From the NCBI GenBank assembly GCA_003213855.1, contig QCMJ01000011.1:1-32322 (forward strand): a stretch of DNA of 32,322 nucleotides, given 5' to 3'. Position 1 is the stretch's first letter, and each line of letters opens with the position of its first letter. Position numbers and translations under genes: made by a program. This document shows, piece after piece, positions 20,676 through 25,443 of the stretch. The notes under the pieces are model-generated. The model was not told the DNA's origin. It ran no database searches and worked only from the letters and a program-made list of their open reading frames with translations. The stretch is from Prochlorococcus sp. AG-418-O03 (GTDB lineage: Bacteria > Cyanobacteriota > Cyanobacteriia > PCC-6307 > Cyanobiaceae).

Positions 20676-21296
20676 TCATCCAATTAAATTATTAATTTTT
20701 TCTTGAAGGTATACTGTTGCAGACTTCAGATCATCTCTTGATGAACTCTGTGGAGGTTGAACAGGTTTTCCTACTTTAATAACTATTTTTGAAAACAAAG
20801 GAATAAAAAATTTAAATCTTATTAGTCTATGAGAATTAACTATTGCAACAGGCAATAATAATTTTTGATTTTTAAAGGCTAATAATGCTGCACCTTGTTT
20901 GGGCTTATTCACTCGACCATTTTTTTGACGCGTACCATCTAGAAATATTCCAATACTATTATCATTTGATAATTTTTTACATGCTGTTTTAATGGTATTT
21001 TTATCCACAATTCCTCTTTTTACAGGATAAGCTCCACAAGCCTTGATAATAACCCCAAGTAGAGGTATTTTAAATAGCTCTGCCTTGGCCATGAAAGATA
21101 TATTACGTCCAAGAGCATGACCCAACAAAGGAGGGTCAAGCAAAGAACCATGATTAGAAACCATTATAAAAGAATTTTTTTGCGGAATATTTTCTCTACC
21201 TATTAAATGACCTCTTAATACAAATTTATAAATTGGAAATACAAAAAGTTTGCTAACTAATTGATAGATTAATTGTTGAAAAACATCATTTTTCAT
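20676..21296 (-). CDS. plsC: 1-acyl-sn-glycerol-3-phosphate acyltransferase
   Basis: Transfers the second acyl chain to lysophosphatidate to give phosphatidic acid, the precursor of all membrane glycerolipids. The 206-residue protein has the acyltransferase HX4D motif NHGSLLD (His49, Asp54). The glycerol-phosphate-binding motif is FLDGTRQKNGR in place of the usual FPEGTRS, keeping the GTR core. A hydrophobic N-terminal segment probably docks it on the membrane. It is the last gene of the rpaB-plsX-fabH-fabD-plsC run, starting 6 bases after fabD, and works one step downstream of PlsX/PlsY. Confidence 0.9.
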   Translation of the reverse strand: MKNDVFQQLIYQLVSKLFVFPIYKFVLRGHLIGRENIPQKNSFIMVSNHGSLLDPPLLGHALGRNISFMAKAELFKIPLLGVIIKACGAYPVKRGIVDKNTIKTACKKLSNDNSIGIFLDGTRQKNGRVNKPKQGAALLAFKNQKLLLPVAIVNSHRLIRFKFFIPLFSKIVIKVGKPVQPPQSSSRDDLKSATVYLQEKINNLIG

Positions 21297-21302
21297 ACTT
21301 GA

Positions 21303-22199
21303 TTAATAAGTTATTTGATTAGAAGATGAAACTTGAGAAATTTTTAAATCTTTCATATGTCTTTTTGCTAAACCGCTAAGCACATTTGATGGGCCAATTT
21401 CAACAAAATGAAGATCATTATCTTTTGCCATTAAATCCATAGTTTCTCGCCACCTTACGCCATTACACATTTGATTTTCCAATCTAGTTTTAAGCTCATC
21501 AGGATCATCACATAATGAAGGCTCATAATTACTTATTACGGGGAAAGAAGGATTTTTAAACTTAATCTGTTTTAAATACTCAGAAAATTTAACTGCAGGC
21601 TCATCCATGAATGGTGAATGGAATGCACCTGAAACATTTAATTTTAGGAATCTTTTACAAGAAATTTCTTTCGATAAATTGTCTAACTCTTCATTAGATC
21701 CTGATAAGACAACTTGGGAAGAGCTATTATCATTAGCAATTACAACATCTTCACTTTTTTTGACTAATAAATCGAGTTCATTTCTATCAAAACCAATTAC
21801 TGCTGCCATAGATCCTTGCCCAGCATTTACCATTAATTGAGATCTTACTTTTATTAGTGATACGCAGTCTTCGAATGAAAAAACATCCGCACAATATAAT
21901 GCAGTTATTTCTCCCAGACTATGCCCAGCAACATAATTTGGTTTAAAACCATTTTCTTTTAAGGCATCTAATAAAATTGATTCAACCAAAAAAAGACAGA
22001 TTTGTGTATTTCTTGTATTATTCAAATCACAAACAGGATTTGTTGGATCAGAATTTAACTCGCAAATTTCAAATAAATTTCTCTCAAATATCTCAGAAGC
22101 ATAACTAAACCTCTCTTTTGTGTTCGGCAAATTTTCAATTTGTTTTGCCATTCCAATTTTTTGCGAACCCTGTCCAGGGAATACCCATGCAACTGTCAT
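21303..22199 (-). CDS. fabD: malonyl-CoA:ACP transacylase
   Basis: Moves malonyl groups from CoA to acyl carrier protein to feed fatty-acid elongation. The 298-residue protein starts MTVAWVFPGQGSQ, the standard family N terminus, so the ATG at 22199 is preferred over an upstream in-frame start at 22226 that would overlap fabH. The catalytic Ser94 lies in GHSLGE, and GAFHSPFM holds the active-site His. It is 17 bases after fabH and 6 bases before plsC. Confidence 0.95.
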   Translation of the reverse strand: MTVAWVFPGQGSQKIGMAKQIENLPNTKERFSYASEIFERNLFEICELNSDPTNPVCDLNNTRNTQICLFLVESILLDALKENGFKPNYVAGHSLGEITALYCADVFSFEDCVSLIKVRSQLMVNAGQGSMAAVIGFDRNELDLLVKKSEDVVIANDNSSSQVVLSGSNEELDNLSKEISCKRFLKLNVSGAFHSPFMDEPAVKFSEYLKQIKFKNPSFPVISNYEPSLCDDPDELKTRLENQMCNGVRWRETMDLMAKDNDLHFVEIGPSNVLSGLAKRHMKDLKISQVSSSNQITY

Positions 22200-22216
22200 A
22201 ATGTTCCTATTTTGTT

Positions 22217-23224
22217 TTAACCCCATTTAATTAGGGCTGCACCCCAACTTAACCCAGCACCGAAACCACTTGTAGCAATAATATCATTTTGTTTAATTCT
22301 ATAATCTCTTATAGCCTCATCCATCATTAGTGGAATAGTTGCTGCTGAAGTATTGCCATATTTTTCTAAATTGCTAAGAATTTTTTCTCTGGGAATTTTT
22401 AACCTTTCTCCTACAGAATCCAATATTCTTTGATTAGCTTGATGCAGCAAGAGCCAATCAACTTGATCTGAATTATATTTCATTTTTTTCAACAACTTTT
22501 CAAGAATTATGGGAACTTCTTTAACTGCGAATTTATAAACTTCCTGACCATTCATCTGAATTGGAGAAAAACCACCATTTAAAAAGTCAATTTCATCAAC
22601 TATTGAATCCTTATTATTTGTTGATGGAAGATTAAGAAAAGAACCCCTCCCCCCATCAGTTCTCATATCAAAACCTATAAAATTATCAAATTCATTTGTG
22701 GCTTCAATTGCTAATGCACCGGCACCATCTCCAAAGAGAATACAACTTCTTCTATCGTTCCAATCAACAAAACTTGATAATTGATCTGCTCCAATAACAA
22801 TAGCCCTTTTAAAACTACCCCCTTTTAAAAATTGTGAGGCTGTTATTAAGGCAAATAAAAAACCACTACAAGCTGCAGTTAAATCGAAAGCTACAGCATT
22901 AGCTGCCCCTAATTTAGCTTGAATGGATGGCGCTGATCCAAATAAATCATGCGGAGTAGAAGTAGCTAAAACAATCAAATCAATCGTTTTAATATCCCAA
23001 TTAGCCATTTCTACAGCAGTAAGAGCAGCCTTATAACCCATCTCAGTAACATTATCTTCTAAACTAGAGATTCTTCTCTCAGAAATGCCAGTTCTAGATT
23101 TTATCCATTCATTGCTTGTATCAACTTTTTGACTAATTTTTTGATTAGTTAGGATTTGATCAGGTACATAACTTCCGCTTCCCTTGAATGCCACTCCAAT
23201 CTGATTAAAATTTATTCCTTCCAA
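22217..23224 (-). CDS. fabH: beta-ketoacyl-ACP synthase III
   Basis: Starts fatty-acid synthesis by condensing acetyl-CoA with malonyl-ACP. The complete catalytic triad is visible in the 335 residues: Cys119 in TAACSGF, His261 in LLHQANQRI and Asn291 in YGNTSAA. The start is TTG at 23224; homology to the family begins about 7 residues in and no ATG fits. A 53-base gap with a strong inverted repeat separates it from plsX upstream. fabD follows. Confidence 0.95.
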   Translation of the reverse strand: MEGINFNQIGVAFKGSGSYVPDQILTNQKISQKVDTSNEWIKSRTGISERRISSLEDNVTEMGYKAALTAVEMANWDIKTIDLIVLATSTPHDLFGSAPSIQAKLGAANAVAFDLTAACSGFLFALITASQFLKGGSFKRAIVIGADQLSSFVDWNDRRSCILFGDGAGALAIEATNEFDNFIGFDMRTDGGRGSFLNLPSTNNKDSIVDEIDFLNGGFSPIQMNGQEVYKFAVKEVPIILEKLLKKMKYNSDQVDWLLLHQANQRILDSVGERLKIPREKILSNLEKYGNTSAATIPLMMDEAIRDYRIKQNDIIATSGFGAGLSWGAALIKWG

Positions 23225-23277: not shown

Positions 23278-24696
23278 TTATGAATTTAAAACTTGAAGCT
23301 TTTGCAGTTGATTTAAATTGTCCATAACACCATGATGCACTGCAGAGTGAGCCAATCGAAGAGCACTAACTACTGATAAAGATTTGCTACTTCCATGACC
23401 AATAACGCAAATACCATTCACCCCAAGTAATAAAGCTCCTCCATGTTCAGCATGATCTAACCTTTTCTTAATTCTAAGAAGATTACTTTTTAAAAAAGCT
23501 GATCCAACTTTCCCCCGCCTTCCACGTGGTAGCTCAGATCTCAAAATATCTAATAAAACTCCTCCCACAGATTCAAGAAATTTCAATAATATATTTCCAG
23601 TAAATCCATCACAGACTACTACGTCGAAACTGCCTGATAATACATCTCGCCCTTCACAATTACCTCCAAAGTCAAAACTTTTTTCAGAAGATAATAATTC
23701 AAATGTTTTTAGGGATAAATCATTACCTTTACATTCTTCTTCTCCGATATTTAAAAGACCAATTCTTGGTTTTTGTACTTGTAGGACATCCTTTGCATAA
23801 ATATTACCTAGAAGAGCAAATTGATGCAGATAAGATGGCTTACAATCAGTATTTGCACCTACATCTAAAACTAATACCGGACGAGTTTGATCCCTTGTTG
23901 GAAACAATGCTCCTATAGCTGGTCTCTCAATCCCTTTCAATCTTCCAATTCTAAATATGGCAGAAGCCATCATGGCACCTGAATTGCCCGCTGAGTAGAC
24001 AGCTTCAGCTTTATTATTTCTAACTAAATCCATTGCAACGTTTATACTTGCATTTTTCTTTTTTCTAACTGCGGTAGCTTCTTCATTCATCCCAATAGGC
24101 TCTCCACTATCAATTAATTCAAGACGATTATTATCTATTTCATTTTCTAATAATTCTACTAAACCAGTTTTTTCTGCTGCATCTTTAACTTTTTCAATGT
24201 TGCCGACAAACTTTATATTTATTGGAAATCTACTTATTGCTTCTAGGCAACCCTCAAGAATGGGACTAGGAGCATAATCTCCACCCATCCCATCAACTGC
24301 AATCCAAATTCTTTTAGATTGAGATTCCTCTACCCTATCTAAAATATTATCGTTATTTTGTAATCTTTTTAATGGATCAAAAACTAATGGCTGTAATGTA
24401 TTTTTAGCTATTGTACTGGCATTTGAAACTACACTACTAGCAGTATTAACAACAGATTCAGCACTTGAAACTACATTACCTGCAACATTACCTGCAACAT
24501 TACCTGCAACATTACTAGCTGTGGTTACTACTGATCCAGCACCAGAAACCATATTACCCGCAACATTACTAGCCGTTGCTGCAGAACTTGCAGCAGTATC
24601 AACTATAGAAGTCACGGCCGAATTTCTTTTGTACCAAATAACTAATCTTCTAATAGCTCTGGACTTGTTAATTTTTTGCGCTGTTTCTTTCCCCAT
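23278..24696 (-). CDS. plsX: phosphate acyltransferase PlsX with repetitive N-terminal extension
   Basis: Makes acyl-phosphate from acyl-ACP for PlsY, the first step of phospholipid synthesis. The catalytic domain starts near residue 130 (RIWIAVDGMGGDYAPSP) and runs to the end, with the usual GLLNIGEEECKGNDL and VVCDGFTGNILLK. PlsX proteins are normally about 330-350 residues; this one has 472 because of a 128-residue N-terminal extension. The extension has a basic segment (residues 1-27) and then six 11-residue units (34-99) poor in charge and rich in Ala, Val, Ser, Asn and Gly. The units place hydrophobic residues at positions 1, 2, 5, 6 and 9. The ATG follows the rpaB stop with no spacer, so the pair is coupled. 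Confidence 0.93.
   Translation of the reverse strand: MGKETAQKINKSRAIRRLVIWYKRNSAVTSIVDTAASSAATASNVAGNMVSGAGSVVTTASNVAGNVAGNVAGNVVSSAESVVNTASSVVSNASTIAKNTLQPLVFDPLKRLQNNDNILDRVEESQSKRIWIAVDGMGGDYAPSPILEGCLEAISRFPINIKFVGNIEKVKDAAEKTGLVELLENEIDNNRLELIDSGEPIGMNEEATAVRKKKNASINVAMDLVRNNKAEAVYSAGNSGAMMASAIFRIGRLKGIERPAIGALFPTRDQTRPVLVLDVGANTDCKPSYLHQFALLGNIYAKDVLQVQKPRIGLLNIGEEECKGNDLSLKTFELLSSEKSFDFGGNCEGRDVLSGSFDVVVCDGFTGNILLKFLESVGGVLLDILRSELPRGRRGKVGSAFLKSNLLRIKKRLDHAEHGGALLLGVNGICVIGHGSSKSLSVVSALRLAHSAVHHGVMDNLNQLQKLQVLNS
24475..24514 (-). repeat. 12-base tandem repeat inside plsX
   Basis: Three perfect copies of ATTACCTGCAAC (plus strand), 24475-24510, followed by a four-base partial copy. 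They encode Val-Ala-Gly-Asn three times in the PlsX N-terminal extension. A degenerate copy lies near 24554. In-frame 12-base units can be gained or lost by replication slippage without breaking the gene, so the length of this segment may vary between strains. Confidence 0.9.
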
Positions 24697-25443
24697 TTAT
24701 TTACCATCAAAAGGAGCAATATCGACAATCCGTTGGAAAAGATATCCTGTACCCCTTGCTGTCAAAATTAATTCAGGATTTGCTGGATCAGCCTCCAGTT
24801 TTGATCTTAATCTTGAAATATGAACATCAACAACTCTTGTATCTACATGTCTCTCAGGGGTATATCCCCAAACTTCTTTCAAAATCTCTCCTCTACTAAA
24901 TGGCTCTCCTGACCTACTGACCAAAAGCTCTAATAGACTAAATTCCATACCAGTTAATCTAATTCTCTCATCACTTTTAAAAACTTGTCTTCGATTTGTA
25001 TCAATTTTTATATCAGTAACCAAAATTAATCCTGAATTAGGCATTCCAGGAATTTGCTCTTTGTCGATTCTTCTAAGAACGCACCTAATTCTAGCTTCTA
25101 ACTCCTTTGGGCTAAATGGTTTTACTACGTAATCATCAGCCCCTAATTCTAAACCTGTTATCCTATCTGCAACATCTCCTAAAGCAGTTAACATAACAAT
25201 TGGGACATCAGAATCTTTTCTTAACTCTTGACAAACTCCATAACCATCTAACTTTGGCATCATGACGTCAAGCACTACTAAATCAGGTTCATAATCTTTA
25301 AATAACTTCAGTGCTTCTTTGCCATCACTTGCAGTTACAACTTTGTAGCCAATCATGGAGAGACGTGTCTCCAGAATTCTTCTAATACTTGCCTCGTCAT
25401 CTGCGACAAGTATAGTTTCTTTAGTTTGACTAGATAGAGCCAT
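24697..25443 (-). CDS. rpaB: OmpR-type response regulator RpaB (Ycf27)
   Basis: Light- and redox-responsive regulator, known in cyanobacteria to be phosphorylated by the kinase Hik33/NblS and to bind HLR1 sites at photosystem I and high-light genes. The 248 residues hold a receiver domain with acidic pocket Asp15/Asp16, phospho-acceptor Asp59 in VLDVMMPKLDG, Thr86 and Lys108. The winged-helix DNA-binding domain is in the C-terminal half ([25 protein letters not shown]). The recognition region and the acidic linker fit RpaB rather than RpaA, which is also in this window. It heads the plsX-fabH-fabD-plsC run. The kinase gene is not in the window. Confidence 0.93.
   Translation of the reverse strand: MALSSQTKETILVADDEASIRRILETRLSMIGYKVVTASDGKEALKLFKDYEPDLVVLDVMMPKLDGYGVCQELRKDSDVPIVMLTALGDVADRITGLELGADDYVVKPFSPKELEARIRCVLRRIDKEQIPGMPNSGLILVTDIKIDTNRRQVFKSDERIRLTGMEFSLLELLVSRSGEPFSRGEILKEVWGYTPERHVDTRVVDVHISRLRSKLEADPANPELILTARGTGYLFQRIVDIAPFDGK

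What the first reader, a model, noticed from the sequence alone, without database searches (positions are those of the whole stretch)
24400..24597. Six 11-residue amphipathic repeats fused to PlsX: a built-in lipid-binding helix?
Seen: PlsX residues 34-99 fall into six consecutive 11-residue units. Positions 1, 2, 5, 6 and 9 are mostly Val or Ala; positions 4, 7 and 11 are mostly Asn, Ser or Thr; positions 3 and 10 are small or polar. Only two charged residues occur. With three turns per 11 residues, positions 1, 5, 9 and 2 form one continuous hydrophobic face of about 100 degrees. Known: 11-mer repeats of this kind in perilipins and alpha-synuclein fold into long helices on lipid surfaces, and Bacillus PlsX is a peripheral membrane enzyme. 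Inference: the extension, preceded by a basic segment (residues 1-27), holds the acyl-phosphate-producing enzyme on thylakoid or plasma membrane, or on lipid bodies, and could sense packing defects. I do not know of a description of such a fusion.
Basis: partly seen in the sequence, partly recalled or inferred. Interest (0 to 1): 0.7.

Follow-up and report, generated by a model that had tools for sequence, protein, structure and literature searches.

The report
Long lipid-binding helix on PlsX enzyme
In Prochlorococcus and its close relatives the lipid-making enzyme PlsX carries an extra front segment whose length differs between species in steps of about one helix turn; the segment is predicted to form one long helix that likely rests on the cell's membranes and could tie lipid production to the state of the membrane.

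Summary
Residues 34-99 of the 472-aa PlsX (window 23278-24696, minus strand) have a hydrophobic moment peaking at 99 degrees, rarely reached by shuffles (24 of 20000 at any angle). The 11-residue unit is a register of hydrophobicity, not the duplicated sequence unit: identity repeats at lags 4, 7, 18, 26 and 33, not 11. The extension is a family trait (H1 in 205 of 206 Prochlorococcus/Synechococcus-family loci with a complete N-terminus, full repeat pattern in 200), absent in the 12 outgroup loci read. Each of 164 distinct repeats is more amphipathic at 99 degrees than its shuffles, and 163 peak at 94-105 degrees. Repeat length (24-93) is quantised at about 3.6 residues: of 80 inferred changes, 26 are of 4 residues, 13 of 7, 12 of 18, none of 5, 9, 12 or 13. 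The extension is under purifying selection. Best reading: a long, neutral, Ala/Val-faced amphipathic helix that likely holds PlsX on membrane. Lipid contact is untested; helix-helix packing is a real rival. AlphaFold is split: coil in full-length PlsX, one 105-residue helix when the extension is folded alone.

The parts
24661..24696 (-). PlsX residues 1-12, basic N-terminal tail (ATG at 24696 directly abuts the stop of the upstream response regulator)
   Evidence: similar Lys-containing tails in the Prochlorococcus loci printed
24622..24660 (-). H1: residues 13-25, RAIRRLVIWYKRN, five hydrophobic/aromatic residues flanked by Arg/Lys pairs
   Evidence: motif in 205 of 206 family loci with complete N-terminus; pN/pS 0.048 (with the next ten residues) in 47 Prochlorococcus sequences
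   Evidence: moment peak 99 degrees; 163 of 164 distinct repeats peak at 94-105 degrees; length quantised at about 3.6 residues
24473..24515 (-). 12-bp tandem array coding NVAG units inside the repeat, 3.6 copies, 100% identical
   Evidence: 468- and 472-aa orthologues differ by one four-residue unit
24358..24396 (-). end motif: residues 101-113, LQPLVFDPLKRLQ
   Evidence: lowest pN/pS of the segments compared (0.023 vs 0.085 for the catalytic part) in the 75-residue class; present in 200 of 206 loci by my pattern
24313..24357 (-). loose linker, residues 114-128
   Evidence: pN/pS 0.517; 50 Pro in 2303 residues of 155 linkers vs 1 in 9338 of 162 repeats
23278..24312 (-). PlsX catalytic domain, residues 129-472 plus stop
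   Evidence: PF02504 4.1e-103 at 132-458; NF010419 and TIGR00182 over cut-off
23494..23529 (-). residues 390-401 PRGRRGKVGSAF, the place of the B. subtilis membrane peptide alpha9
   Evidence: alignment to 1vi1/6a1k; PRGRRGK(V/L)GSAF in the 84 family rows of alignment A1
20676..23224 (-). downstream genes of the same strand: fabH 22217-23224, fabD 21303-22226, plsC-type acyltransferase 20676-21296 (tight cluster)

Best explanation
PlsX of the Prochlorococcus/Synechococcus family carries a conserved N-terminal extension (basic aromatic segment, repeat of 24-93 residues, LQPLVFDPL[KR]RLQ motif) whose repeat is predicted to fold into one long, neutral, Ala/Val-faced amphipathic helix that likely lies on the thylakoid or plasma membrane and holds the enzyme there. 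Shown from sequence: the amphipathic register, its conservation, the change of length in steps of about one helix turn, the purifying selection, and presence in this family but not in the outgroup loci read. Inferred: the segment would be loose in the cytosol and fold on contact with lipid, as perilipin 4 and alpha-synuclein do; H1 (+5 charges, Trp-Tyr) would be the first contact with anionic lipid; the neutral repeat would add weak binding in proportion to its length, so that evolution tunes affinity by adding or removing whole turns; the end motif would dock the helix to the enzyme or the membrane. The product, acyl-phosphate, would thereby be made at the membrane where PlsY uses it. Untested: any lipid contact, and whether binding also changes activity.
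For: Moment: 164 of 164 distinct repeats exceed their own shuffles at 99 degrees (p<0.05; 158 at p<0.01), 163 peak at 94-105 degrees, incl. 87 of the 88 outside the WYK Prochlorococcus group. Lengths: 24 distinct values give a Rayleigh peak at 3.64 residues, R 0.64, reached by 0 of 5000 random sets and 0 of 3000 sets made of free 4- and 7-residue units. Events: 80 parsimony changes on a catalytic-domain DNA tree peak at 3.62 (mean cosine 0.73; geometric and jitter nulls 0 of 20000 each), a protein tree gives 78 and 3.64; the 47 DNA-tree events outside the WYK group peak at 3.60, bootstrap 3.55-3.63. Different clades use different units, near whole turns: 7 (L143, L148), 11 (L146), 18 (L207, L203), 22 (L201, L202). 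Wheel: face centre 61-71% Ala plus Val, Val-rich flanks, far side Ser/Asn/Gly/Thr; 3.5% charged; 1 Pro in 9338 residues. pN/pS of the repeat 0.12 against 0.085 for the catalytic part and 0.52 for the linker. AF2 of residues 1-129 alone: helix 2-106, mean pLDDT 83.3. 18-residue windows within the repeat have muH 0.20-0.35, against 0.257 (Plin4) and 0.30 (alpha-synuclein) in PMC5889406. PlsX of a cyanobacterium was mapped to the thylakoid membrane (one passage of PMC6878006; the organism, Synechocystis, is recalled), and B. subtilis PlsX needs an amphipathic peptide for its membrane place (PMC6702220).
Against: No lipid evidence at all from these tools. AF2 of full-length PlsX with 94 rows gives residues 14-122 pLDDT under 50 and no helix there except 110-114. 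The helix model of the extension alone rests on 36 sequences, the other 35 being 84-98% identical to the window, and has pTM 0.37; the other four models average 72-76. The repeat has almost no charge and few bulky residues: its HeliQuest-type discriminant stays at 0.66 or less, under the 0.68 that I recall as the usual threshold for lipid binding; windows around H1 exceed it. Perilipin 4, similar in low charge and hydrophobicity, binds ordinary bilayers poorly (PMC5889406). An Ala-centred face also suits helix-helix packing. H1's own hydrophobic phase (163 degrees) is opposite to that of the repeat (about 340-20 degrees) if both were one straight helix, so they cannot share one face. A thylakoid place for PlsX is reported in a cyanobacterium outside this family (as recalled), and the 12 outgroup loci read lack the extension, so the extension is probably not needed for membrane association in general. 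Repeat-copying by slippage itself preserves existing periods, so quantised lengths are not wholly independent of the pattern; counting each event size outside the WYK group once weakens the mean cosine to 0.43.
Confidence: 0.55

Rival explanations
1. The extension is an amphipathic helix, but its Ala/Val face packs on protein: on the second subunit's extension, on the catalytic stem, or on a partner such as PlsY, FabH or ACP; it builds an assembly of lipid enzymes, not a lipid contact.
For: Face centre is 61-71% Ala, with Gly/Ser on one flank, as in close helix-helix packing; almost no charge; the end motif is the most constrained segment compared (pN/pS 0.023), which suits a protein dock; neighbours fabH, fabD and plsC lie in the same tight cluster.
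Against: Classic coiled coils repeat every 3.5 residues; distinct lengths give R 0.19 at 3.5 against 0.64 at 3.64, and events outside the WYK group peak at 3.60 with bootstrap 3.55-3.63, though the contrast there is modest (mean cosine 0.54 at 3.5, 0.64 at 3.60, 0.58 at 3.67). A packing partner would be expected to fix the length, which ranges from 24 to 93. Hendecad bundles (3.67) are not excluded by the length scan (R 0.61). AF2 of a dimer could not be run.
Confidence: 0.25
2. The repeat is an unstructured low-complexity spacer that grows and shrinks by replication slippage and has no function beyond length.
For: 12-bp perfect array, 4-residue indels among close relatives, AF2 coil in the full protein, no Pfam domain over cut-off in the three extensions scanned.
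Against: Moment at the helical angle in 164 of 164 distinct repeats; free 4/7 units do not give the observed lengths (0 of 3000); different unit sizes in different clades; one Pro in 9338 residues against 50 in 2303 of the neighbouring linker; pN/pS 0.12.
Confidence: 0.1
3. The helix coats lipid bodies, like perilipins.
For: Moment and low hydrophobicity close to perilipin 4 (PMC5889406).
Against: DGAT2 family (PF03982) absent in 19 of 19 genus genomes (five at least 90% complete), matched in 6 of 11 other cyanobacteria searched, 5 over the cut-off; PMC11973298 says oceanic Prochlorococcus and Synechococcus lack it (passage). PHA synthase N-domain 0 of 30 (it rang only in Caulobacter among the controls) and WS/DGAT 0 of 30 (it rang nowhere), so these two say little.
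Confidence: 0.04
4. The start is wrongly called and the extension is not translated.
For: In many Synechococcus-type loci the open frame runs on upstream, apparently into another reading of the regulator gene, so the exact start there is unclear.
Against: Strong purifying selection on H1 and the end motif, stronger than on the catalytic part in the three classes compared; ATG at 24696 directly after the upstream stop; the curated NF010419 model of 440 positions has about 97 positions before the catalytic start.
Confidence: 0.02

Closest known systems
CTP:phosphocholine cytidylyltransferase alpha (CCT), domain M
   Same: A lipid-synthesis enzyme with its own repeat-type amphipathic helix in the order basic segment, 11-mer repeats, hydrophobic segment (passages in PMC11329639, and PMC10720463).
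   Different: CCT's helix is at residues 236-294 of 368 (Table 1 of PMC5889406), behind the catalytic domain (recalled), is 49% charged, and is known to autoinhibit; here the helix precedes the enzyme, is nearly uncharged, and nothing is known of activity. No homology claimed.
Perilipin 4 and alpha-synuclein 11-mer helices
   Same: Long, weakly hydrophobic, almost without aromatic residues, moment 0.26-0.30 (Table 1 of PMC5889406), hydrophobic register of three turns per 11.
   Different: Here the units are 4, 7, 11, 18 or 22 residues with indels, charge 3.5% against 15-24%, and it is fused to an enzyme; no Pfam match over cut-off in the three extensions scanned (Synuclein only E 0.64 for L146).
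B. subtilis PlsX amphipathic peptide alpha9 (residues 253-261)
   Same: Same enzyme; an amphipathic helix gives peripheral membrane place (PMC6702220).
   Different: Nine residues inside the protein at the stem tip; in this family the site reads PRGRRGKVGSAF, with Leu254 aligned to Arg.
NCBIfam NF010419 / PRK13845 'putative glycerol-3-phosphate acyltransferase PlsX'
   Same: Curated model of the long form; window protein scores 883.7 bits over a cut-off of 729.
   Different: A name only; the listing gives no role to the extension.

Membership tests
PlsX phosphate acyltransferase | PF02504 / TIGR00182 domain over curated cut-off | tested here: met
   345 bits, 369 bits; solved relatives 1u7n, 1vi1, 6a1k
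PlsX phosphate acyltransferase | acyl-ACP:phosphate transacylase activity | not testable with these tools
   none
Long picocyanobacterial PlsX (NF010419) | score over 729 bits | tested here: met
   window 883.7; L142 863, L146 859; the repeat-less L106 651 and L124 640 are under it
11-mer exchangeable lipid-binding helices (perilipin, synuclein) | hydrophobic register of about 3 turns per 11 residues | tested here: met
   moment peak 99 degrees, period-11 folding 0 of 2000 shuffles
11-mer exchangeable lipid-binding helices (perilipin, synuclein) | 11-residue SEQUENCE repeat without indels | tested here: not met
   identity at lag 11 at chance in the window; of the eight repeats compared by lag, only L146 peaks at 11
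11-mer exchangeable lipid-binding helices (perilipin, synuclein) | homology to Perilipin/Synuclein Pfam models | tested here: not met
   no match over cut-off in the three extensions scanned
11-mer exchangeable lipid-binding helices (perilipin, synuclein) | folds and binds on lipid | not testable with these tools
   AF2 split: coil in full length, helix alone
Left-handed coiled coil | 3.5-residue (heptad) period | tested here: not met
   3.64 by lengths, 3.60 (3.55-3.63) by events outside the WYK group, 99-100 degrees by moment
B. subtilis-type PlsX membrane peptide | amphipathic TLTSKLAAA-like alpha9 with Leu254/Leu258 | tested here: not met
   site reads GRRGKVGSA
CCT-like amphitropic lipid-synthesis enzyme | membrane binding changes catalytic rate | not testable with these tools
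   none

The most novel reading that the evidence does not exclude
Picocyanobacteria have a bacterial counterpart of CCT: the enzyme that commits acyl chains to glycerolipid carries an inducible amphipathic helix that reads membrane packing and charge and sets lipid output by recruiting or activating PlsX, and evolution tunes its sensitivity in quanta of one helix turn, from 24 to 93 residues.
Probability: 0.2. Interest if true: 0.85.

Novelty: new variant of a known kind. Interest (0 to 1): 0.62.

Why it matters
If true, some of the most abundant photosynthetic organisms steer membrane-lipid synthesis through a built-in helix of a kind known mainly from eukaryotic lipid enzymes and lipid-droplet proteins, in a cell that must build thylakoids with a small genome. 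The natural series of lengths, 24 to 93 residues in whole-turn steps on one enzyme, is a ready-made experiment on how helix length sets membrane affinity. The length-quantisation test itself is a sequence-only assay for helical constraint in low-complexity segments, usable where structure prediction fails.

Tried and rejected
Eleven-residue sequence duplication as the origin: identity at lag 11 is at chance in the window. Heptad coiled coil: wrong period. One straight helix including H1: phases opposed. 'Anchor swap' special to this family (loss of the Bacillus alpha9 peptide with gain of the extension): the site also differs from Bacillus in the other cyanobacteria read (mostly PRG/PQG forms), so the swap is not tied to the extension. 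Lipid bodies: see rivals. A second copy of the extension elsewhere in the genome: none at E up to 10 in an assembly that is 80.6% complete. Stand-alone relatives: the search considers only proteins of about 71-225 aa; 152 matches, 120 listed, of which I read ten: all begin as PlsX N-termini, some cut or frame-broken; P0231 carries helix-hairpin-helix domains behind a PlsX start on a 1680-base contig and looks like an assembly join, not followed. Order of gain and loss of the repeat: unresolved, the DNA tree nests the repeat-less L106 and L123-L126 within the family and the protein tree puts L126 at the base. Weak Pfam hits (PhoD_2 E 0.009, DUF3659, Synuclein E 0.64) are under their cut-offs and were not used.

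Limits of the counts: loci overlap (some genomes came from two sources, L001 and L002 are the window itself), hence the 164 distinct H1+repeat+end strings, which are still related by descent. Left out of the length tests: L127-L129 (truncated), L091 (end motif not matched by my pattern), L106 and L123-L126 (no repeat), and the 12 outgroup loci. The lengths 41 (L090) and 44 (L122) come from altered end motifs matched by special patterns and may be off by a residue or two. Parsimony events among near-identical Prochlorococcus may be inflated by tree error, hence the separate test on 47 events outside that group. Trees are FastTree. The linker-length control has only nine distinct values and little power.

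Papers: PMC6702220 abstract, Results part 1, Discussion part 1; PMC5889406 abstract and three Results sections; PMC8064757 abstract and two Results sections; PMC6878006, PMC11973298, PMC6164224, PMC10720463 and PMC11329639 passages only. No description of this extension appeared in the listings (no papers); the library misses most subscription journals. The lipid make-up MGDG/DGDG/SQDG/PG, the HeliQuest threshold, the use of acyl-phosphate by PlsY and the organism of PMC6878006 are recalled, not from a call.

Full report
What is there. PlsX is window 23278-24696 on the minus strand, 472 aa, ATG at 24696. The catalytic domain PF02504 starts at residue 132, so about 128 residues precede it. The window lies in a 1.31-Mb genome that is 80.6% complete; the best-matching named records are Prochlorococcus. 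The protein is over the cut-off of NCBIfam NF010419, the long-form PlsX model. Upstream, ending at 24697, is an OmpR-type response regulator (Response_reg plus Trans_reg_C); downstream on the same strand follow fabH, fabD and a plsC-type acyltransferase.

The observation. The six 11-residue rows are real and their hydrophobic pattern is beyond chance: moment peak at 99 degrees, 0 of 20000 shuffles at 98.2 degrees, 24 of 20000 at any angle, period-11 folding 0 of 2000. But the residues themselves do not repeat every 11: lag 11 is at chance while lags 4, 7, 18, 26 and 33 stand out. The window's repeat is written with NVAG tetrads (a 12-bp array) and an 18-residue unit that is plain in relatives such as L207, where lag 18 gives 73% residue identity.

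Distribution. I collected 221 loci and took the open frame that best matches the catalytic domain. Of 209 loci of the Prochlorococcus/Synechococcus family, three lack the N-terminus. Of the other 206, 205 have the H1 motif and 200 have H1, repeat and end motif. The exceptions are L106 and L123-L125 (H1, no repeat), L126 (basic tail only) and L091 (repeat present, altered end motif). The 12 loci from other cyanobacteria have none of it. Among the listed rows of the same class outside the family the open frame is 341-420 aa, against 415-516 for family members not cut by a contig end; I read N-termini of only 12 of the former. Whether the repeat-less members lost it or never had it is unresolved.

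Helical register. Over 164 distinct sequences every repeat beats its own shuffles at 99 degrees (p<0.05) and 163 peak between 94 and 105 degrees; the pooled spectrum peaks at 99 degrees in the WYK Prochlorococcus group (76) and at 100 in the rest (88). On the wheel the face centre is 61-71% Ala plus Val, the flanks Val-rich, the far side Ser, Asn, Gly and Thr; 3.5% of residues are charged and one of 9338 is proline, at the very start of one repeat, against 50 of 2303 in the adjacent linker.

Lengths. The distance between H1 and the end motif takes 24 values from 24 to 93. They cluster at whole helical turns: a Rayleigh scan from 2.5 to 8 residues peaks at 3.64 (R 0.64 for distinct lengths; 0 of 5000 random sets), with R 0.60 at 3.6, 0.61 at 3.67, 0.19 at 3.5 and 0.13 at 4. 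Lengths built from free numbers of 4- and 7-residue units do not do this (0 of 3000). On a catalytic-domain DNA tree of 187 rows I count 80 changes: 26 of 4 residues, 13 of 7, 12 of 18, 5 of 3, 4 of 14, 4 of 22, 3 of 11, 3 of 15, 2 of 10, 2 of 2, and one each of 1, 6, 21, 29, 36 and 51. The mean cosine peaks at 3.62. A protein tree gives 78 changes and 3.64, with two changes of 8 and one each of 16, 19 and 33; neither tree has a change of 5, 9, 12 or 13. The 47 events outside the WYK group peak at 3.60 (bootstrap 3.55-3.63; mean cosine 0.64 there, 0.54 at 3.5, 0.58 at 3.67). Different clades copied different units, 7, 11, 18 or 22, near whole turns. The face of the last 18 residues, measured from H1, stays within 278-14 degrees for 23 of 24 lengths (52 is off at 209). 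The caveat is that slippage between existing repeats also preserves an existing period; the mixture of unit sizes in different clades is what argues for selection on phase.

Selection. In 47 Prochlorococcus sequences of the 75-residue class pN/pS is 0.048 for H1 and the next ten residues, 0.121 for the repeat, 0.023 for the end motif, 0.517 for the linker and 0.085 for the first 300 catalytic residues. The 42-residue class (26 sequences) gives 0.108, 0.279, 0.109, 0.719 and 0.185, the 71-residue class (34) 0.035, 0.132, 0.018, 0.524 and 0.100. So the extension is most likely translated and is kept by selection; the end motif is more constrained than the enzyme, the repeat somewhat less.

Structure prediction. 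Full-length PlsX with a 94-row alignment: residues 14-122 below pLDDT 50 and no helix there except 110-114. The extension alone with 35 close relatives: one helix 2-106, mean pLDDT 83.3, other models 72-76, pTM 0.37. These disagree and neither settles the matter. A segment that is loose in water and helical on lipid would fit both; that is inference.

What it works like. The window's 18-residue windows have muH 0.20-0.35 and near-zero charge in the repeat, and charge +3 to +7 in those starting at residues 1-16, around H1. Published values are 0.257 for perilipin 4 and 0.30 for alpha-synuclein (PMC5889406). Perilipin 4 is unfolded in water, folds on lipid, binds more with length, and binds ordinary bilayers poorly. 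The order basic segment, repeats, hydrophobic segment matches the description of CCT domain M, an amphitropic lipid enzyme. B. subtilis PlsX reaches the membrane by a nine-residue peptide whose site differs here, and a cyanobacterial PlsX was mapped to thylakoids. Hence the commitment: a long membrane helix that holds PlsX in place (0.55), with helix-helix packing as the main rival (0.25) because the face is Ala-centred and no lipid evidence exists.

Verdict. Observation confirmed and extended; interpretation partly supported; new variant of a known kind. The strongest part is the conserved helical register and the whole-turn length rule; the weakest is the step from helix to lipid.

Noticed in passing
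window 24696-24697: plsX ATG directly abuts the end of the OmpR-type response regulator (24697-25443, minus); in many Synechococcus-type loci the plsX frame runs on upstream, apparently in another frame of that gene, so the two may be translationally coupled.
   Followed up: no
window 24521-24823 (+): A 100-codon open frame antisense to the start of plsX; likely a by-product of the repeat and regulator sequence, no evidence of a gene.
   Followed up: no
L106, L123-L126: Synechococcus lacustris and four unnamed genera keep a basic tail (WYRR/WYHR segment in four of five) but lack the repeat and end motif; the order of gain and loss is unresolved.
   Followed up: partly
L008 (G034): A near relative whose plsX match contains one TAA in the aligned stretch; the open frame read was 464 aa.
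   Followed up: no
P0231: A 194-aa protein that joins the PlsX extension and catalytic start to helix-hairpin-helix domains on a 1680-base contig; probably an assembly join.
   Followed up: no
L098: A record named Microcystis elabens FACHB-917 has a Cyanobium-type extended PlsX (same repeat as Cyanobium loci), so the name may not reflect its family.
   Followed up: no
genus g1 genomes: No DGAT2-family match in 19 of 19 Prochlorococcus-genus genomes (five at least 90% complete), while 6 of 11 other cyanobacteria have one (5 over the cut-off).
   Followed up: yes
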